Shown here one piece after another: positions 33,163 through 44,502 of a stretch of 64,000 bases of DNA (positions are counted from its first letter, which is position 1; each line of letters starts with the position of its first letter). The stretch is taken from assembly GCA_016861045.1 (NCBI GenBank), contig BOKP01000002.1, positions 248,001 through 312,000 of the forward strand. The letters are read 5' to 3'. A program made the position numbers and the translations under genes. The DNA comes from Actinomycetes bacterium (GTDB lineage Bacteria; Actinomycetota; Thermoleophilia; Solirubrobacterales; 70-9). Below the pieces are notes generated by a model, which was not told the origin of the DNA, did no database searches, and was given only the letters and a program-made list of their open reading frames with translations.

Positions 33163-33396
33163 ATGCCACAGATCATCATCACGACCGACGCGCCCGACGG
33201 CAGGGCGACCGAGGTCCATCGCGAGCGGATCAGCCCGGTCGATGTCGAGACCGAGGCCGCCAGCTTCCTGCTGGTCGAGCGGATCGGCTGGGCCCTGAGC
33301 GACGCCGACGACCTCGAGCACCCGGCCGCGACCGGGTCCGCGACTACGCCGGCTCGTGGAGGCAGGTCGGGTCGGCCGCGAGCGGGTCGCCGGTGA
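33163..33396 (+). CDS. Small protein of unknown function, 3' end overlapping the radical SAM gene
   Basis: A 77-codon frame with an excellent ribosome site (AAGGAGGG ending 3 bases before the ATG at 33163). It begins MPQIIITTDAPDGRATEVHR and continues ISPVDVETEAASFLLVERIG, with strongly G/C third positions for about 55 codons. After the DDLEHPAATG region codon use deteriorates and the frame becomes Arg/Gly-rich, running 53 bases into the 3' end of the convergent radical SAM gene. I think the first two thirds are real and that the tail reflects a lost or shifted end. No known domain is recognised, and there are no Cys residues or leader-core pattern to suggest a modified peptide. Confidence 0.6.
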   Translation: MPQIIITTDAPDGRATEVHRERISPVDVETEAASFLLVERIGWALSDADDLEHPAATGSATTPARGGRSGRPRAGRR

Positions 33397-34501
33397 GCGC
33401 GTAGGCGCGGGCGCGGCTGCCGCCGCAGACCTCGCGGAACTCGCAGCGGCCGCACTTGCCCTTGAGCTGCGCCGGGTCGCGCAGCTGCCGGAAGAGCGGC
33501 GAGTCGCGGTAGATCTCGACCGGGCTCCGGCGCCGCACGTTTCCGGCGACCAGCGGCAGGAAGCCGGAGGGCATGACGTCCCCGCGATGGGAGATGAACA
33601 TGAAGCCGCGGCCGTCGTTGACGCCCTTGGCCGGGCGGTTGAGGCCGTCGGCGAAGCGGTATCCGGCGCCGGCGAGCACATCCGGGCGGCCACCCTCGTC
33701 GGCGGCCGGGACGGCGCGGCGGGCGCGCTCGGCGACGATCCGCCGGTACTGCGGCGCGGCGGTGGCCTTGACGTCGAACGGGGCGGTGGCCGCCGTCTCC
33801 TGCAGCCAGCCGAGCACCCGCTCGTGGCCGGCGGCGTCGAGCATCGGCAGCGTCCGGCCGCGGCCGACCGGGACGAGAAAGAACACCGACCACTGGACGA
33901 CGCCCCACTCCTCGAGCAGCGGGACCATACGCTCGAGCTCGCCGTCGTTGAGCCGGCAGGCGGTCGTGTTGACCTGCAGCGCCAGCCCCTCCGCGGCCGC
34001 GTTCTCGATCCCGCGCAGGGTCCGCTCGAACGAGCCCTTGAAGCCGCGGAAGCGGTCGTGGACGCGCGGATCGGCGGCGTCGACGCTGAACGCGACCCGC
34101 CGGATCCCGGCCTCGCGCGCGGCGGCCATCCGCTTGCGGGTCGTGAGCGCCGTCGCCGTCGGCGTCAGCGAGACCCGCAGCCCACGCCGATCGGCGTGGG
34201 CGGCGAGCTCGAAGATGTCGCGCCGCATCAGCGGGTCGCCGCCGGTGAGGACGAGGATCGGCCTGGTGCCGAAGCCCGCGAGCTCGTCGATCAGCGCCTC
34301 GCCCTCGCTCGTCGACAGCTCGAGCGGGTCGCGGCGCGGCTGGGCGTCGGCGCGGCAGTGCAGGCAGGCGTAGGCGCAGGCGCGGGTCAGCTCCCAGGCG
34401 ATCGTGAACGGCGCCCGGTCGAAGTCGAGCCGCTTGACGGCGGCGTCGCGCTCGGCCCGGGCGGCCCTGGCCGCGGCGGCCTGCGCGACGGCCGCCTCCA
34501 T
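33344..34501 (-). CDS. Radical SAM/SPASM protein, AhbD-related (TIGR04053-like)
   Basis: Iron-sulfur enzyme of 385 residues from the ATG at 34501. The radical SAM cluster motif is AWELTRACAYACLHCRADAQ (C-x3-C-x2-C), with the SAM-binding VLTGGDPLMRRDIFEL and VAFSVDAADPRVHDRFRG. The SPASM domain at the C-terminus contains CGRCEFREVCGGSRARAYAL and a final Cys in AADPTC, giving auxiliary cluster ligands. Overall it resembles the AhbD group, which decarboxylates Fe-coproporphyrin III to heme, and the related family of unknown role first noted in Bacillus. Its start overlaps the stop of the NirJ1-like gene by one base, so the two are made together. Its exact reaction is uncertain. Confidence 0.82.
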   Translation of the reverse strand: MEAAVAQAAAARAARAERDAAVKRLDFDRAPFTIAWELTRACAYACLHCRADAQPRRDPLELSTSEGEALIDELAGFGTRPILVLTGGDPLMRRDIFELAAHADRRGLRVSLTPTATALTTRKRMAAAREAGIRRVAFSVDAADPRVHDRFRGFKGSFERTLRGIENAAAEGLALQVNTTACRLNDGELERMVPLLEEWGVVQWSVFFLVPVGRGRTLPMLDAAGHERVLGWLQETAATAPFDVKATAAPQYRRIVAERARRAVPAADEGGRPDVLAGAGYRFADGLNRPAKGVNDGRGFMFISHRGDVMPSGFLPLVAGNVRRRSPVEIYRDSPLFRQLRDPAQLKGKCGRCEFREVCGGSRARAYALTGDPLAADPTCLHEPA

Positions 34502-35691
34502 CAGACGGCCACCGCCTCGAGCACCTCGTCGTCGGTCAGGTAGCAGGCCGGATCCGATGCGGTGAAATCGCCGGTGGCGCTGACCGCCCGGACCCTGAGC
34601 CCGCCGTTGCAGAGGTCCTGGAACCTGCATTCGCCGCAGCGTCCGCGCAGCTCCCGCGGCCGCCGCCGGTAGGGCTCGAGCAGCGGGTTCGCGTCCGTCC
34701 AGATCTCGCCGAACGGCCGCTCGCGGACGTTGCCGACGGTGACGTCCCAGGAGAACTGGTCCGGATGGACCCGCCCCCGCGGGTCGATCGACGCGACCGC
34801 GATCCCGGACTGGTTGCCGCCGTTCCAGCGCAGCAGCCGCTCGACCTCGGCGGCGCGCTCGGGCTGGGTCCGCTCGATCCGCTTCAGCAGGAGGACGTTG
34901 TCGACCGGGTTGTCGACGGTCAGCACCTCGATGTCGACGCCGCGGCGCGCGAGGTCCTCGGCCCGGTCGAAGATCTCCTCGACGACCTCGCGGGTCTCGG
35001 CCGGCTCGAGGTCGTACTTGCTGATCTTCTCGCCGCGCCCGGCGTAGGCGAGGTGATAGACACAGAGCCGGTTGACCCCCTCGCGCTCGGCGAGCTCGAA
35101 GATCGAACCGAGCTCGGACCGGTTGAGGCCGTGGATCGTGTAGCGCACCCCGGTCCTCAGCCCCGCTGCCTGGGCCGCCCGGATCCCGCCCAGCGACGCC
35201 TCGAAGGCACCCTTCTTGCCGCGCAGCTTGTCGTGGCGGGCGCCGATCCCGTCGATGCTGATGCCGACGTAGGAGAAGCCGGCGGCGGCGACGTCACGAC
35301 CGGCGGCCTCGTCGAGCAGCGTGCCGTTGGTCGAGAGGACCGTGCGCATCCCGGCGTCCCGCGCCGCCGCGGCGAGCTCGAGCAGGTCGGGGCGCATCAG
35401 CGGCTCGCCGCCGGAGAAGAGCACGGTCGGGACCCCGAAGTCGGCGAGCTCGCCGATCAGGTGCCGGCCCTCGGCCGTGGTCAGCTCGCCCGGGTACTCG
35501 CGGTCCTTGGAGTCGGAGTAGCAGTGCGCGCAGTGCAGGTTGCAGCGCTGGGTCGCGTTCCAGACCACTACCGGCTTCTTGTCCTCGCTGAAGTGCAGCA
35601 GGTGGGCGGGGCTGCGGGCGGTCGATCGGCCGTAGCGGATCGCGTCCGCGGGCCCGACCGTTCCCGCGAGCAGACGGGTGACGCTCAGCAT
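34501..35691 (-). CDS. Radical SAM/SPASM protein, NirJ1/AhbC-like
   Basis: Iron-sulfur enzyme of 396 residues from the ATG at 35691 (MLSVTRLLAGTVGPADAIRY). The match to NirJ1-type proteins as I remember them is close along the chain: HLLHFSEDKKPVVVWNATQR, CNLHCAHCYSDSKDREYPGE (cluster motif), FGVPTVLFSGGEPLMRPDLL, GFSYVGISIDGIGARHDKLR, YHLAYAGRGEKISKYDLEP, VLTVDNPVDNVLLL, and the SPASM end CGECRFQDLCNGGLRVRA with DPACYLTDDEV. NirJ/AhbC enzymes remove propionate side chains from didecarboxysiroheme on the way to heme d1 or heme. The partner gene next to it is AhbD-like. AhbA/AhbB and siroheme genes are not in the window, so the pathway claim is inference. Confidence 0.85.
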   Translation of the reverse strand: MLSVTRLLAGTVGPADAIRYGRSTARSPAHLLHFSEDKKPVVVWNATQRCNLHCAHCYSDSKDREYPGELTTAEGRHLIGELADFGVPTVLFSGGEPLMRPDLLELAAAARDAGMRTVLSTNGTLLDEAAGRDVAAAGFSYVGISIDGIGARHDKLRGKKGAFEASLGGIRAAQAAGLRTGVRYTIHGLNRSELGSIFELAEREGVNRLCVYHLAYAGRGEKISKYDLEPAETREVVEEIFDRAEDLARRGVDIEVLTVDNPVDNVLLLKRIERTQPERAAEVERLLRWNGGNQSGIAVASIDPRGRVHPDQFSWDVTVGNVRERPFGEIWTDANPLLEPYRRRPRELRGRCGECRFQDLCNGGLRVRAVSATGDFTASDPACYLTDDEVLEAVAV

Positions 35692-37970: not shown

Positions 37971-40802
37971 TCAGGGCGCCTCGCGGCCGAGCCAGCCCCG
38001 GTAGAAGCCCTCGATGTCGGGCAGGAAGTCGTGGGTGACGGGATAGCCGGGCGTGGTCGCGTCGCACTCGAGCAGCCGCGCGCATTCGGGGCAGTAGAAC
38101 TCGCGAACCTCGACCCATTCGGGGTCGCCGCCGGCGAACTTCGGGAAGACCTCGCCCATCTTCTCCTCGTCGTCGCGGACGAAGACGGCGGCCTCCATCT
38201 TCCAGTTGCGGTCGTGGCGGCAGAACCGGTGGCCGCAGTCGCAGCGGATCACCAGCTCGCCCGCCGCCCGGACGACGTTCAGCCCCTCCCCGAGCGGGAG
38301 CACGATCGGCTCGTCGTAGGCGACCCGCTCCTGCAGGATCGAGAGCCACTTGTCGAAGCGGTCGGGGTCCTTGTAGCCGGACTGGATATCGCGGACCTGG
38401 CGCCGCGAGAGCCTCTCGTCGAGCAGCGCCTCGAGGGTGTCCCGCTCGAACGGCTTGCCGGCGGCCCGCGGCCGCTCGACGCGATCGACCCGGGAGGCGG
38501 CGAGGAACTCGTCCGCGGACTGCTCCGGCGTGACCTTGCCGGCGGCCGCGCGCTCGACCGCGACGGTCGGGGTCGGCGCCTCGACCTCGAAGTCGGGCTC
38601 GAGGTCCCAGAAGCCTCGGAACTCGGCCGCCCAGCGCGGCGACAGCTTCATCGACTCCGCGAGCGCGATCCGGACGGGCTCGATCATCTCCCCGGCGACG
38701 ACCCGCTCGCGCTGGGTCGCCCACCACTCGCGGACGGGCACCGCCCGGCGCAGCCGCTCGGCCCGGAACCTCTCGCGGCGGCTCGCGCTCGCCGCCTCGT
38801 CGGCGTTGCCGTCGGCGTCGAGCACGACGCCGTAGGTCGAGTCGGCGAAGCGCGGCAGGAGGTGTCCCTCGGCGACGTCGCGGGCGACCGCGGCGGGCGG
38901 GCGGAGCAGCGCGTCGCCGAGGCCCGGGGCGCCCTTCATCACCGACAGGTAGAGGTCGCCGTCGGCGAACGGCTCGAGGGTGGTCATGTTGTCCTGCTTG
39001 TAGGTGCGCTCGCCCTCGATCGCCATCAGCGCCGGCTCCTCGAAGCTGCCGTCGGCGACCGGGTAGGCCTCGCCGCGCCGCGCCCGCTCGCGCAGGTCGT
39101 TGCCCTTGATGTTGTGGATGTAGCCGGCCGAGCCCGGGTATCCGCCGAAGATCCCGGCGGTCAGCATCCGCGTGCAGCCGAGGTTCTGAAGCTCCCAGAA
39201 CGGCGTCTTGGAGAGCATCAGCAGCGACTCGAAGCTGGAGCCGCCGCGGTGGCGCCCGGCGCCGCCCGAGTTCGCCTTGATCCGTCGCGACAGGTAGATC
39301 ATCGGGCTGATCAGCTCCCACATCTCGACGTCGCCGGCGTCGCCCTCGGGGTTGAACATCGCCGCGCAGGTGTCGGTGCCGTCGAGGACGTACTTGGCCC
39401 CCATCCCCTGCGCCGCGATCTCGAAGTTCATGATCGCCGAGGAGCTGCCGTACTGGTCGATGCCGCCGCCCTGGATGACGTTGCCGCTGACCGAGTACGG
39501 CGCCATCACCTCCTCGATGAAGCCGCGCGCCTGCAGGCCGCGGGCGAGCGTTCGCGCGAACCCGAGGAAGGCCGGCTGCAGGAACGCCCAGGCGATCCCG
39601 GTCGAGCCGTCGGCGTCGCCGAGGTTCGCGATCGTCCCCTCCGGGAAGTTCGTCTCGATCGCGAGGTAGGCGCCGTCGTTGACCTTGTCGTTGCAGATCA
39701 GGGTCTGCGTGAACATCACCCAGATCGCGCCCTGCATCCCCGACGGCGTGCAGTTCATCGAGTGCCAGCCCCAGGCCGAGGAGCCGTCGAGATCGAGCGA
39801 GTACTCGCCGTCGCCGCCGATCCGGACCTCGAACGGGGCGTGCATCACGAAGTCGCGGCGGGCCCGCGCCGGCAGCGTCTCCTTGTCGGCGAAGGTGATG
39901 TCGAAGTTCGACGCCGAGCGGTAGCGCCCGGGCACGGTCATCTCCGCGATCCGCGACTTGAACGAGCGCCTGCCGTCCTCGATCACCTCGCGGCTGAACC
40001 GCTTGAAGCGGTCGACGCCCTCCTCGAGGACGACGCGCTCGACCGCGTCGCGGATCATGTGGCAGCCGGCGAGCCGGGTGCGCTCGTCGAGCAGGTAGTA
40101 CATCGGCGCCCGCGTCTGCTTCGCGCAGCGGGTCAGGTGCCACCGGGCGAGCTCGTCGCCCTCGCCGATCTTCATGCACGGCAGGTCGAGGCCGTCGTCG
40201 AGCCGGTTGGTCGGCCCGACCGGCACCCCGCCGGGGGTCGAGGCGCCGATGTCGAGGACGTGGGTGACGCCGCCCGCCCAGGCGATCAGCTCGGGCCGCT
40301 CGCGGTCGGTGTGGTCGAAGATCGGCACGAACGTCTGCACGTCGGCGTTGTGGACGTCGCCGATCGTCGGATCGTTGTTCGCGAAGATGTCGCCCGGTGC
40401 GATCCCCGGGTTCGACTCGTAGCCGGAGCGGACCATGTGCTTGATCGCGTCCGACATCGTGTGGACGTGGACGATGATCCCGGTCGAGAGGGCGATCGAG
40501 TCGCCCTCGGGGGTGTAGAGGGCGAAGCAGAGCTCGCCGAGCTCGCGGACGATCGGCGAGGCGGAGATGTTGAGCGCGGTCTCGCGGGCCGAGACGAGGC
40601 CGCCGCGGAGGCGCGCGAACAGCTTCTCGTAGCCGATCGGGTCGCGCTCCTTGAGCTCGAGCTCGCCGGCGAGGCCGGCGTAGGCGCCGGTCTCGGCGAA
40701 CAGCCGCTCGGAGTCGGCGAGCATCTGCGCGAGGCTGCGCCCGTCCCAGCCGATCGGCGGGCGGTCGGGCTCGAGCTCCCTGGTCGCCTCGACGATCGCC
40801 AT
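37971..40802 (-). CDS. Acetone carboxylase alpha-gamma fusion protein
   Basis: A 943-residue chain from the ATG at 40802. Residues 1 to about 765 are the HyuB-type alpha subunit of acetone carboxylase: SARETALNISASPIVRELGE, HVHTMSDAIKHMVRSGYESN, GDIFANNDPTIGDVHNADVQ, GAIWVMFTQTLICNDKVNDG and GGSSFESLLMLSKTPFWELQ. Residues from about 788 to the end match the separate gamma subunit: DIQSGYKDPDRFDKWLSILQ, IRCDCGHRFCRHDRNWKMEA and EFYCPECARLLECDA, with Cys near 854, 856, 861, 904 and 907 for a zinc site, then PVTHDFLPDIEGFYRGWLG. The total equals alpha (about 770) plus gamma (about 168). The enzyme would carboxylate acetone or a related ketone to acetoacetate using ATP. It starts 2 bases after the beta gene. 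Confidence 0.88.
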   Translation of the reverse strand: MAIVEATRELEPDRPPIGWDGRSLAQMLADSERLFAETGAYAGLAGELELKERDPIGYEKLFARLRGGLVSARETALNISASPIVRELGELCFALYTPEGDSIALSTGIIVHVHTMSDAIKHMVRSGYESNPGIAPGDIFANNDPTIGDVHNADVQTFVPIFDHTDRERPELIAWAGGVTHVLDIGASTPGGVPVGPTNRLDDGLDLPCMKIGEGDELARWHLTRCAKQTRAPMYYLLDERTRLAGCHMIRDAVERVVLEEGVDRFKRFSREVIEDGRRSFKSRIAEMTVPGRYRSASNFDITFADKETLPARARRDFVMHAPFEVRIGGDGEYSLDLDGSSAWGWHSMNCTPSGMQGAIWVMFTQTLICNDKVNDGAYLAIETNFPEGTIANLGDADGSTGIAWAFLQPAFLGFARTLARGLQARGFIEEVMAPYSVSGNVIQGGGIDQYGSSSAIMNFEIAAQGMGAKYVLDGTDTCAAMFNPEGDAGDVEMWELISPMIYLSRRIKANSGGAGRHRGGSSFESLLMLSKTPFWELQNLGCTRMLTAGIFGGYPGSAGYIHNIKGNDLRERARRGEAYPVADGSFEEPALMAIEGERTYKQDNMTTLEPFADGDLYLSVMKGAPGLGDALLRPPAAVARDVAEGHLLPRFADSTYGVVLDADGNADEAASASRRERFRAERLRRAVPVREWWATQRERVVAGEMIEPVRIALAESMKLSPRWAAEFRGFWDLEPDFEVEAPTPTVAVERAAAGKVTPEQSADEFLAASRVDRVERPRAAGKPFERDTLEALLDERLSRRQVRDIQSGYKDPDRFDKWLSILQERVAYDEPIVLPLGEGLNVVRAAGELVIRCDCGHRFCRHDRNWKMEAAVFVRDDEEKMGEVFPKFAGGDPEWVEVREFYCPECARLLECDATTPGYPVTHDFLPDIEGFYRGWLGREAP

Positions 40803-40804
40803 CC

Positions 40805-42961
40805 TCAGGTGCCCTCCCCGCTGATCGACATGTGGAAGATCTGGTGGCGATCGAGCCGGGCGGTCCGGCCCGGCGGGATCGCCAGGGTCGTCGCCACCGA
40901 CTCGACGATCGCCGGGCCCCCGATCACGTGCCCCGGGCGGACCTCGGCGAGCTCGTGGATCGGCGTCGCGACGAAGCCGTCGCCCCAGTGGACCGGTCGG
41001 CGGTCCTTCTCCGGCGGCGTCCCCTCGACCGGCTCGGCGTCGGGCAGCGCCGGCGTCTCGACCGGGACCGAGCCGGTGACGATCGCGTGCGTGACCAGGT
41101 AGCCGAGCTCGGGCGAGCGGGCTGAGCGCGCGTAGACCTTGCCGTAGGCGTCCTCGAACGTGGCGATCAGGGCGTCGAGGTGACCGGCCTCGGTCAGCTC
41201 GGCGTGCGGGGAGGCGATCTCGATGTCGTTGAGCTGGCCGTAGTACTGCATCCGGACCGCGTGCTGGAACTCGATCCGCCCGCGATCGATGCCGGACTTG
41301 GCGAACTCGGCCGCGACCTTCTCCTCGAGGCCGCGCCAGGCGCCGCTGACCATCATCCCGATCCCCGCCTTGGTGCCGTCGTCGGCGGCGAGCCCGGCGG
41401 CGCCGACCGGCAGGTCGATCGTCCGGTCGTAGCGGTACTCGAACGGGGCGCAGGCACACCCGTAGGCGGAGAACCCGGCCGCCCAGGCCGGGATCAGGAC
41501 GTCGCGGTAGGGGACCTCGTCGGTGTACCCGGCGACGTGCAGCGGCCCGCCGCCGCCGTAGCAGAGCAGCGCGTAGTCGGCGGGCGAGTAGCCCTTGCCG
41601 AGGATCCGCCCGACCGCCTCGTTGCGCAGCGTCTGCTCGAACAGCGAGACGACGCCGGCCGCGGCGTCGGCGACCGGCAGGCCGAGCGGCTCCGCGACCT
41701 GGCGCTCGACCTCGGCCCGGGCGCGCTCGGGGTCGAGCTCGATGTCGCCGCCGAGGAAGTAGTCGGGGTTGATCCGGCCGAGCACGAGGTCGAGGTCGGT
41801 GATCGACACCGTCTCGAGGCCTCCCTCCGGCCAGCAGACGCCGATCCGCGAGCCGGCCGAGTCGGGCCCCAGCTCGGGCCGGTTCGAGTTCGGGTTGACG
41901 CGCACGAACGAGCCCGTGCCGGCGCCGACCGAGTCGATCTTGACGAGCGGCATCGCGAGGACGAAGCGGGCGATGTCGGGCGTCTGCGTGATCTCGGTGC
42001 GGCCGTCGGTGAGCAGGGCGATGTCGAAGGAGGTGCCGCCGATGTCGGTGCAGAGCACGTTCGGGAGGCCGAGGCGCTCGGCGAGCGCGCGCCCGCCGAC
42101 GACGCCCCCGATCGGGCCGGACACGAGCGTCCGCGCCAGCTCCTTGGCCTCGATCGAGATCGTGCCCCCGTGCGAGGCCATCACCCGCAGCTCGAAGCCG
42201 GCATCGTGGTCCTTGGTCTTCGCGCGGACGGCGCGCAGCGTCTTCCGGCTCGGCTCGGCCGCGTACGCCTCGATCAGGGTGGAGTTCAGCCGCGGCAGGT
42301 CGCGCCGCATCGGATACAGCTCGGAGGAGAGGAAGACCGGGACCTCGCCGTCGACGCCGCGCTCGGCCTTCACCTCCTCGACGATCCGTCCGACCCTGAT
42401 CTCGTGCTCGGGGTTGCGGTAGCTGAACAGGAGCGAGACGCAGATCCCCTCCACCCCGGCGTCGAGCAGCGCCGCCGCGGCCTCGCGGGCGTCCTGCTCC
42501 CGCAGCGGCAGGATCTCCTCGCCGAAGACGTCGACCCGGCCGCGCACGCCGAGCACGCGCTCGCGCGGGACGAGCGGCGGGTTGTGATGGTGGGTGGCGA
42601 GATGCAGCCGGTCGGAGTACGAGTAGCCGAGGTAGGTCTGGATCCCGCGCTCGATCCGCAGGTAGTCCTCCTGGCCGGCGCTGACGATCGCGCCGATCTC
42701 GAGCCCCTGGCGCGAGAGCAGGCGGTTCAGCATCGCCGTGCCGCTGAAGATCCCTGAGACGAGGAGGGGGAACGCCCGCTCCGCCGTGCTCCCCCACTGC
42801 TCGAGGGCGTCCCCGGCCGAGCCCATGAAGCCCCGCGACTCGTCCTCGGGCGTCGTCTGCGCCTTGCCGACCACGAAGGAGCCGGCGTCGTCGACGATGA
42901 TCGTGTCGGTCATCGTCCCGCCCGCGTCGATCGCGAGAACGCGCGGGTTGTGCTCAGCCAC
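40805..42961 (-). CDS. Acetone carboxylase beta subunit (HyuA family)
   Basis: ATP-handling subunit of 718 residues from the GTG at 42961, with GGAG about 10 bases upstream. The N-terminus AIDAGGTMTDTIIVDDAGSF and FVVGKAQTTPEDESRGFMGS match acetone carboxylase beta subunits specifically rather than plain hydantoinases. Central motifs include VLCTDIGGTSFDIALLTDGR and KIDSVGAGTGSFVRVNPNSN, and near the end GHVIGGPAIVESVATTLAIP, as in the HyuA/oxoprolinase fold. It phosphorylates the ketone (as enol) and bicarbonate for the alpha subunit. It precedes the fused alpha-gamma gene by 2 bases, and a PucR-type regulator lies 135 bases upstream on the same strand. Acetophenone or another ketone is possible as substrate, but the gamma domain favours acetone or butanone. 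Confidence 0.9.
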   Translation of the reverse strand: MAEHNPRVLAIDAGGTMTDTIIVDDAGSFVVGKAQTTPEDESRGFMGSAGDALEQWGSTAERAFPLLVSGIFSGTAMLNRLLSRQGLEIGAIVSAGQEDYLRIERGIQTYLGYSYSDRLHLATHHHNPPLVPRERVLGVRGRVDVFGEEILPLREQDAREAAAALLDAGVEGICVSLLFSYRNPEHEIRVGRIVEEVKAERGVDGEVPVFLSSELYPMRRDLPRLNSTLIEAYAAEPSRKTLRAVRAKTKDHDAGFELRVMASHGGTISIEAKELARTLVSGPIGGVVGGRALAERLGLPNVLCTDIGGTSFDIALLTDGRTEITQTPDIARFVLAMPLVKIDSVGAGTGSFVRVNPNSNRPELGPDSAGSRIGVCWPEGGLETVSITDLDLVLGRINPDYFLGGDIELDPERARAEVERQVAEPLGLPVADAAAGVVSLFEQTLRNEAVGRILGKGYSPADYALLCYGGGGPLHVAGYTDEVPYRDVLIPAWAAGFSAYGCACAPFEYRYDRTIDLPVGAAGLAADDGTKAGIGMMVSGAWRGLEEKVAAEFAKSGIDRGRIEFQHAVRMQYYGQLNDIEIASPHAELTEAGHLDALIATFEDAYGKVYARSARSPELGYLVTHAIVTGSVPVETPALPDAEPVEGTPPEKDRRPVHWGDGFVATPIHELAEVRPGHVIGGPAIVESVATTLAIPPGRTARLDRHQIFHMSISGEGT

Positions 42962-43096: not shown

Positions 43097-44278
43097 TCAC
43101 CTCAGCTCGAACAGCCGCAGCGCCGTCTCGAGCTCGGCGCGGCGGGTCGTGACCGGGCGCCCGAGCGCCTCCTCGATCGTCCGCAGCCGGTAGGCGACGG
43201 TGTGCTCGTGGACGCCGAGCACGGCCGCCGCCGACGAGGCGTTCTGGCCGGCCGCGAAGTACGCGCGCAGCGTCGCGCGCAGCCGCCGCGAGCGGGCGTC
43301 GTCGCCGTCGATCCCGCGCAGCTCGCGGGCGACGAACACGCCCGCCCGGGCGTCGTCGCCGCCGACGAGGCTCTCCAGCGCCACGTCCTCGTAGCGGACC
43401 GGCTGCCCGCGGGCGCCGGCGCGGAGCGCGACCCGGTGGGCGTCGCGCGCCTGCCGGTGCGAGGCCCGGAACCCCTCGACGCCGGCGGCCGGCTCGCCGA
43501 ACGAGATCCGCGCGTCCTCGACGGCGGGCAGGCGCTCCGGCAGGTCGAACTCGCGAGTGCGGCCGATCCAGCCCCAGGCGATGTCCCCGGTGAGCACGAC
43601 CACGAGCCGGTGCGGCGCGTCGAGGCCCTTGGCGAGCGCACGGACGACCGCCTCGGGGTCGGCGGCGGAGGCGACCAGCGCCAGGTGGTTGAGGCGGAGG
43701 TCGTAGTCGAGCGTTCCCGTCGCCCCGGCCGGATCGGGGTCGGCGCCCTCGAGGACGTCGCGGACGAGCTGCGTGCGCCGCTGCTCGCGCGAGCGCAGGA
43801 AGCGGTCGCGCTCGGCCGTGTACTCGTCGGTGACCATCGCCGAGACCCGGTCGACGTGGTCGAACAGGTAGGCGGAAGCGGCCGCGATCGCCTCGCGTCG
43901 CGCCGGAGCGCCGATCGGCTCGGCCTCGAGCAGCTCGAACATCCGCTCCCAGACGATCGCGTGCCCGATCCGGTAGGTGCGAAGGAGGGCCCCGAGCGGG
44001 AGCCCGAGCCGGGCCGTGATCAACGCCAGCTCGCGGGCGTCGCCGGGGACCATCTCCGGCACCCGCCGGTCGCCCGCGATCGCCTCGAGCCCGGTCTCGA
44101 GGTTGGCGAGGCACGAGTCGCGCACGGTCTCCCAGAGCTCGGGCCCGCCGAACTCCGCGTACTCGGGAACGCGGTCGTGGATCGCGCCGACGAGCTCGTC
44201 GGCGAGCTCGTCGCGGCCGGCGAGCAGCTCCCCCGACACCCGCCCGAGGCTCGCTTGCGGCGACCGCTGCCGTGGCAT
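43097..44278 (-). CDS. PucR/CdaR-type transcriptional regulator
   Basis: DNA-binding regulator of 393 residues from the ATG at 44278 (MPRQRSPQASLGRVSGELLA). The N-terminal half is an all-helical sensor domain of the RsbRD/PucR-associated type (RVPEYAEFGGPELWETVRDS, LGALLRTYRIGHAIVWERMF). A middle GGDEF-like domain follows (ARISFGEPAAGVEGFRASHR). The C-terminal helix-turn-helix is typical of PucR: LRATLRAYFAAGQNASSAAA then LGVHEHTVAYRLRTIEEALG. Known acetone carboxylase operons are often driven by a sigma54 activator; here a PucR-type protein sits upstream on the same strand, so it is the likely local regulator. The effector is unknown. Confidence 0.87.
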   Translation of the reverse strand: MPRQRSPQASLGRVSGELLAGRDELADELVGAIHDRVPEYAEFGGPELWETVRDSCLANLETGLEAIAGDRRVPEMVPGDARELALITARLGLPLGALLRTYRIGHAIVWERMFELLEAEPIGAPARREAIAAASAYLFDHVDRVSAMVTDEYTAERDRFLRSREQRRTQLVRDVLEGADPDPAGATGTLDYDLRLNHLALVASAADPEAVVRALAKGLDAPHRLVVVLTGDIAWGWIGRTREFDLPERLPAVEDARISFGEPAAGVEGFRASHRQARDAHRVALRAGARGQPVRYEDVALESLVGGDDARAGVFVARELRGIDGDDARSRRLRATLRAYFAAGQNASSAAAVLGVHEHTVAYRLRTIEEALGRPVTTRRAELETALRLFELR

Positions 44279-44502
44279 CGGCCCGATCCTACGCTCCCGG
44301 CCGCGCGCGGGAGACCGGGCTCCGGCGAGGGGCCCGGCTCCCGGGAGGCCCCCGCATCCCCGCAAGCCACGCTCCCGCCCGCCGGCGACGACGAGCCGCT
44401 CCGCCGGGGGCCGCGTCCCGCCGCTCGGGCCGGCGATCAGTTTCGACGCGGGCGGGGGTCTCAATCGATGAACGGACACCGCACCCGAACCGAGGAGCAG
44501 CC

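What the first reader, a model, noticed from the sequence alone, without database searches (positions are those of the whole stretch)
37971..42961. Acetone carboxylase with alpha and gamma subunits fused in one polypeptide
The 943-residue protein has the full HyuB-type alpha chain and, after a short linker near residues 765-787, an almost complete gamma subunit with its Cys-rich zinc site. Known acetone carboxylases are (alpha-beta-gamma)2 with three separate chains. The junction shows no stop, frameshift or loss, and total length equals the sum of the two. The beta gene is 2 bases upstream.
Basis: partly seen in the sequence, partly recalled or inferred. Interest (0 to 1): 0.72.

Follow-up and report, generated by a model that had tools for sequence, protein, structure and literature searches.

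The report
Acetone carboxylase with fused alpha-gamma chain
A bacterium of the order Solirubrobacterales encodes an acetone-carboxylase-type enzyme in two proteins instead of the usual three, because the small zinc-site subunit is joined to the metal-site subunit; the same joined protein occurs in at least 31 other genomes of the order, so it is a real, apparently undescribed variant of a known enzyme rather than a new kind of enzyme.

Summary
Confirmed. Window 37971-40802 (-) encodes one 943-aa chain: residues 37-738 match the Xanthobacter acetone carboxylase (XaAC) alpha subunit and 786-943 nearly all of gamma (E 6e-193 and 2e-43). Beta lies 2 bases upstream. The genome has no other gamma gene. 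It is no artefact: 37 complete alpha-gamma frames occur in 32 genomes of the order (Solirubrobacterales); elsewhere in the sampled genomes alpha and gamma are separate genes. The Mn-binding residues and the four gamma cysteines are kept here, and the modelled gamma part superposes on XaAC gamma at 1.2 A. Likeliest reading: an ordinary ATP-dependent ketone (acetone) carboxylase built as (alpha-gamma)2 beta2, gamma tethered by a partly helical linker of about 47 residues. The substrate is inferred; acetoacetyl-CoA synthetase is in the genome, but also in most of the order. Alpha trees reject a single fused clade, beta does not, so there were two fusions, or one fusion with or without a later split. 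The zinc cysteines are lost in 22 of 36 fused proteins, but also in some unfused ones. No held paper describes the fusion. New variant of a known kind; moderate interest.

The parts
37971..40802 (-). Fused alpha-gamma chain, 943 aa (ATG at 40802, TGA at 37973-37971)
38589..40802 (-). Alpha part, residues 1-738 (HyuB-type; matches XaAC alpha 37-742). Mn ligands E90, H151, D154, H181; H112 equals XaAC His111
38448..38588 (-). Linker, residues 739-785; predicted helix 759-769 with high confidence; weaker stretch about 771-810 (pLDDT 63-77 per block of ten)
37974..38447 (-). Gamma part, residues 786-943, with Cys854, Cys856, Cys904, Cys907 (XaAC gamma Cys74, 76, 124, 127)
40805..42961 (-). Beta subunit (HyuA-type, nucleotide-binding), 718 aa, GTG start
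43097..44479 (-). PucR-type transcriptional regulator, same strand, 135 bases before beta; candidate regulator (homologues flank the fused locus in 10 of 36 relatives examined)

Best explanation
This is an ATP-dependent ketone carboxylase of the acetone carboxylase (Acx) branch whose gamma subunit has become the C-terminal domain of alpha. The beta chain phosphorylates the enol(ate) of acetone and then bicarbonate with ATP; the intermediates pass through an internal channel to the metal in the alpha part (E90, H151, D154, H181), where acetoacetate forms; the gamma domain packs on alpha as the separate gamma does in XaAC, now at a fixed 1:1 ratio. The complex would be (alpha-gamma)2 beta2. Acetoacetate would be activated by the acetoacetyl-CoA synthetase found elsewhere in the genome. 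Shown here: the fusion, its recurrence, the kept catalytic residues, the predicted folds of the two parts. Inferred from XaAC (PMC5543143): the complex, the mechanism and the substrate.
For: One uninterrupted frame with full alpha and gamma matches; no second gamma gene; 37 complete fused frames in 32 genomes of the order, linker 34-56 residues, beta adjacent in most; Mn ligands and His111 invariant in 36 of 36 fused proteins, beta Phe405 in 36 of 36; alpha 46.7% identical to XaAC over 696 residues; the tree places all fused proteins inside the Acx set with SH-aLRT 100; AlphaFold model pTM 0.78, alpha part Z 35.4 over 650 residues to 5SVC_A and gamma part 1.2 A over 162 columns to 5SVB_F; acetoacetyl-CoA synthetase at 765 bits against a cut-off of 521 in the same genome.
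Against: No activity data. Acetoacetyl-CoA synthetase is in 177 of 232 genomes of the order and so is weak support. No CoA-transferase or zinc alcohol dehydrogenase gene adjoins the operon as in some proteobacterial acx clusters (against 39, 41). The aromatic patch near the metal differs from XaAC (Trp408, 438, 479 are Phe, Val, Phe), so metal or substrate preference may differ. Two same-genus genomes lack it, so it is an accessory trait.
Confidence: 0.78

Rival explanations
1. Same architecture and chemistry, but the physiological substrate is another ketone (butanone or a larger one) rather than acetone.
For: Alpha is only about 44-47% and beta 50-52% identical to the proteobacterial type; the aromatic patch around the metal is changed, with Trp479 to Phe in 30 of 36 fused and 1 of 34 unfused proteins; a separate fused clade sits in a different operon with glutamine-synthetase-like, CoA-transferase III and ABC transporter genes.
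Against: Catalytic and nucleotide-site residues are conserved; the fused clade is not set apart by unusually long branches; the window's operon carries no extra pathway genes that would name another ketone.
Confidence: 0.3
2. An acetophenone-carboxylase-like or hydantoinase/oxoprolinase-type enzyme with a gamma-like tail.
For: Same superfamily; NCBIfam's only hits are to Apc and caprolactamase models. HyuB proteins with a short gamma-like tail do exist in the order.
Against: Those NCBIfam hits reach only about 7-36% of their curated cut-offs; XaAC outscores Apc and caprolactamase at least twofold in bits for every part; gamma is the long Acx form; the Apc-like loci of the order look different and have a second HyuA-type subunit.
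Confidence: 0.03
3. Assembly or sequencing artefact that removed a stop codon between two genes.
For: None found beyond the fact that most relatives are metagenome bins.
Against: Same fusion in 36 other open frames from 31 other genomes of different projects, with conserved linker motifs; GC3 is 0.98 through the linker.
Confidence: 0.005
4. The chain is cut after translation, or gamma is also started inside, so that the working enzyme is the ordinary three-chain hexamer.
For: Part of the linker region is modelled with lower confidence (about residues 771-810).
Against: No in-frame start codon in the linker of the window gene, and no consistent start with a ribosome-binding site across relatives.
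Confidence: 0.05

Closest known systems
Acetone carboxylase of Xanthobacter autotrophicus Py2 (AcxABC; PDB 5M45, 5SVB, 5SVC)
   Same: All three modules over nearly full length; Mn ligands Glu89, His150, Asp153, His175 and gamma's four Zn cysteines conserved; beta-alpha-gamma order kept.
   Different: Gamma is a domain of the alpha chain, not a separate chain; alpha's C-terminal tail is replaced by a linker; XaAC Glu85 is Arg (as in many unfused relatives); the aromatic patch is altered.
Unfused Acx of the same order (L063, L103, L104; alpha about 60% identical)
   Same: Close relatives, same gene order, four cysteines kept.
   Different: Alpha and gamma are separate genes in different frames, overlapping by 4 bases or 14-35 bases apart.
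Acetophenone carboxylase (Apc; PDB 5L9W)
   Same: Same superfamily: HyuA- and HyuB-type subunits and a small subunit with four cysteines.
   Different: Two HyuA-type subunits, a shorter gamma and an extra subunit; much weaker sequence match.
5-oxoprolinase / N-methylhydantoinase single chains (PDB 9H03)
   Same: A precedent for subunit fusion in this superfamily (PMC8453981).
   Different: There the HyuA and HyuB parts are joined and gamma is absent; the reaction is lactam hydrolysis.

Membership tests
Acetone carboxylase (Acx) | HyuB-type alpha, HyuA-type beta and gamma modules all present, closer to Acx than to Apc or hydantoinases | tested here: met
Acetone carboxylase (Acx) | Third, separate gene for gamma (acxC) downstream of acxB (criterion of PMC5214803) | tested here: not met
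   Gamma is the C-terminal domain of the same reading frame; no separate gamma gene in the genome. Hence described as a variant on the Acx branch, not as a standard AcxABC.
Acetone carboxylase (Acx) | Module lengths: alpha about 720-776 aa, beta about 715, gamma about 160-170 with the longer N-terminal region | tested here: met
   738 and 158 aa modules, beta 718 aa
Acetone carboxylase (Acx) | Falls in the Acx branch of the family tree | tested here: met
   Fused proteins lie in a supported clade nested among three-gene Acx sets from Proteobacteria, Bacillota, haloarchaea and other bacteria; no Apc or hydantoinase rows were in the tree, so this rests on pairwise scores as well
Acetone carboxylase (Acx) | Mn/Fe site Glu89, His150, Asp153, His175 in alpha | tested here: met
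   E90, H151, D154, H181; invariant in 36 of 36 fused proteins
Acetone carboxylase (Acx) | Four zinc cysteines in gamma | tested here: met
   Cys854, 856, 904, 907 in the window; not universal in the family
[quoted passage not shown]
   needs purified enzyme
Acetophenone carboxylase (Apc) | Second HyuA-type subunit (alpha') and short gamma | tested here: not met
   Only one HyuA-type gene adjoins the fusion in the window; gamma is the long form
Hydantoinase / 5-oxoprolinase | No gamma subunit; shorter HyuB of about 570 aa | tested here: not met
   Full gamma domain and long alpha; the genome has another, separate HyuB-type gene

The most novel reading that the evidence does not exclude
Tethering gamma to alpha relaxed the need for gamma's zinc site: in the fused lineages the cysteines were lost in steps (CCCC, then TACS/SACS, then SSDx), giving a natural series that shows what the zinc and gamma are for, and one fused subgroup has moved to a different ketone in an operon with gamma-glutamyl-type genes.
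Probability: 0.2. Interest if true: 0.55.

Novelty: new variant of a known kind. Interest (0 to 1): 0.4.

Why it matters
The structural papers read here describe acetone carboxylase as three separate chains and leave gamma's role open. A natural alpha-gamma fusion, the usual form in one bacterial order, fixes gamma to alpha at 1:1, offers a two-gene version that may be easier to express and engineer, and shows that gamma's N-terminus lies within reach of alpha's C-terminus. The series of relatives with and without the four cysteines makes the open question of what the gamma zinc does directly testable.

Tried and rejected
Artefact at the junction: rejected. A separate gamma elsewhere in the genome: none. 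Fusion as the cause of zinc loss: not supported, since unfused Paracoccus, Amaricoccus, a Bradyrhizobiaceae and a Salinisphaeraceae genome also lost the cysteines, and only two independent contrasts exist on the tree. XaAC Glu85 to Arg/Lys as a mark of the fusion: rejected, as 21 of 34 unfused proteins also have Lys or Arg there. Acetoacetyl-CoA synthetase as proof of acetone use: weak, since it is in 177 of 232 genomes of the order; it lies within about 10 kb of a fused locus in two relatives (G427:C79, G396:C3; coordinates). CoA transferase (PF01144): none in the genome. A single fused clade: rejected by alpha and by the joined alignment (AU p 0.006 and 0.004) but not by beta (p 0.51), so the number of events is open. 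Papers: searches for a fused acetone carboxylase, and for acetone carboxylase with Solirubrobacter or Thermoleophilia, found no description; only open-licence papers are held, and domain-architecture databases could not be consulted. An NCBIfam search of the second fusion class failed on a wrong coordinate and was not repeated.

Full report
What is there. On the minus strand, 42961-40805 encodes a 718-aa HyuA-type protein and, 2 bases on, 40802-37971 encodes a 943-aa protein. Pfam reads the latter as Hydantoinase_B (54-630) plus the entire Acetone_carb_G profile (827-938). Against solved structures, 37-738 aligns with XaAC alpha 37-742, 786-943 with XaAC gamma 4-163, and the upstream protein with XaAC beta, each far better than with acetophenone carboxylase or caprolactamase. 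The linker (739-785) keeps coding composition (GC3 0.98) and has no in-frame start codon at the gamma boundary. So the observation and coordinates are right.

Is it real and how common. The genome (2.70 Mb, 97% complete) has one gamma-type domain, this one. PF08882 was searched in 232 genomes of the order, 399 of the class and 396 of the phylum. Sixty surrounding regions were fetched and every open frame compared with the window's alpha, beta and gamma: 37 complete frames, including the window's, hold alpha and gamma together, in 32 genomes. A scan of 84,980 named species genomes with an alignment of the fused proteins returned 76 loci; every fused one bears a title of Solirubrobacterales, Solirubrobacteraceae, Thermoleophilia, or an unclassified actinobacterial or bacterial bin, whereas Aneurinibacillus, Alicyclobacillus, haloarchaea, Deltaproteobacteria, Dehalococcoidia and others have alpha and gamma apart. 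Plasmid-borne acx of Paracoccus, Ancylobacter, Methylorubrum, Cupriavidus, Halococcus, Natronorubrum and Acidibrevibacterium are all annotated as three genes. The host order is thus inferred as Solirubrobacterales; no tool names the window's own organism.

How the fusion arose. Three loci of the order keep separate genes: alpha ends soon after a conserved 'ATPE' motif that the fused chains share as 'TPTV', and gamma starts 4 bases before to 35 bases after, in another frame. A joined alpha, beta and gamma tree puts the fused proteins and these three together with full support inside the Acx set. Within it there are two fused clades with different linker motifs (about 'PGKxTPEESAxxFLA' in the larger one, to which the window belongs; 'RQPRTEV' in most of the other), and the unfused trio is sister to the smaller. 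Holding all fused proteins together is rejected by the joined alignment (AU p 0.004) and by alpha alone (0.006) but not by beta alone (0.51). Two fusions, or one fusion and one later split, are both open.

Does it look functional. The Mn-site residues are invariant in all fused proteins, as are His111 of alpha and Phe405 of beta in XaAC numbering. Glu89 of XaAC, essential for acetoacetate formation (PMC12250083), is E90 here. AlphaFold on 32 fused proteins gives pTM 0.78 and mean pLDDT 72.5; the poorest parts are 182-238 and 438-543 in the alpha module, while the linker has a confident helix (759-769) and a weaker stretch after it (771-810). Foldseek matches the gamma part to XaAC gamma at 1.2 A over 162 columns, and VIA-align gives Z 35.4, 3.4 A over 650 residues for the alpha part against 5SVC_A. 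The model cannot show the two-chain complex.

Zinc site. Counting the equivalents of XaAC gamma's four cysteines, 14 of 36 fused proteins keep CCCC; the rest read TACS, SACS, TGCS, SSCT or SSDx. Of 34 unfused proteins 29 keep CCCC. Because unfused lineages also lost it, and the fused ones are related, fusion cannot be blamed; the tree needs at least 7 changes. This agrees with the view that the zinc is structural rather than catalytic (PMC5543143, PMC10865871). The window protein keeps all four.

Context. Upstream lies a PucR-type regulator (43097-44479, minus); homologues flank the fused locus in 10 of 36 relatives. Acetoacetyl-CoA synthetase is present elsewhere in the genome and a PF01144 CoA transferase is not; but the synthetase is common in the order. 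The smaller fused clade sits in a recurrent cluster of ABC transporter, GntR regulator, beta, alpha-gamma, glutamine-synthetase-like, CoA-transferase III and peptidase C26 genes, in varying subsets, which hints at another substrate for that clade.

Known or new. The papers read here define acetone carboxylase as (alpha beta gamma)2 from three genes (PMC5543143, PMC5214803, PMC10865871). Fusion of the other two modules is known in 5-oxoprolinases (PMC8453981). No held paper describes an alpha-gamma fusion. I class it as a new variant of a known kind. It is neat and testable but changes the architecture and not, as far as shown, the chemistry; hence interest 0.4.

Noticed in passing
L021:1-1773(+), L022:1489-3279(-), L027:1492-3309(-); many weak PF08882 hits: A second, different class: HyuB-type proteins with a short gamma-like tail (weak PF08882 match, about 21-47 bits) in frames of about 730 aa and more, spread through the phylum and up to 12 hits per genome (G450). 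Not acetone carboxylase by score; hydantoinases are described as lacking gamma.
   Followed up: partly
L066, L067, L084, L089, L090, L091, L093, L096: The smaller fused clade sits in a recurrent cluster with ABC transporter, GntR, glutamine-synthetase-like, CoA-transferase III and peptidase C26 genes, and has lost most or all gamma cysteines except in L067; possibly a different ketone, from amine breakdown.
   Followed up: partly
fused proteins; L123, L179, L180, L202: Repeated loss of the four gamma zinc cysteines in fused and in some unfused acetone carboxylases.
   Followed up: partly
window residue F483 of the fused chain (XaAC alpha Trp479): Trp to Phe in the aromatic patch proposed as a metal filter, throughout the window's fused clade; most of the smaller fused clade and nearly all unfused proteins keep Trp.
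   Followed up: partly
L077 and L080; L072 and L074: Beta is transcribed away from alpha-gamma in two relatives, and lies about 1.5 kb before it in two others.
   Followed up: no
window 33344-34630 (-): Radical SAM/SPASM protein above the cut-off of TIGR04053 and similar to heme b synthase AhbD.
   Followed up: no
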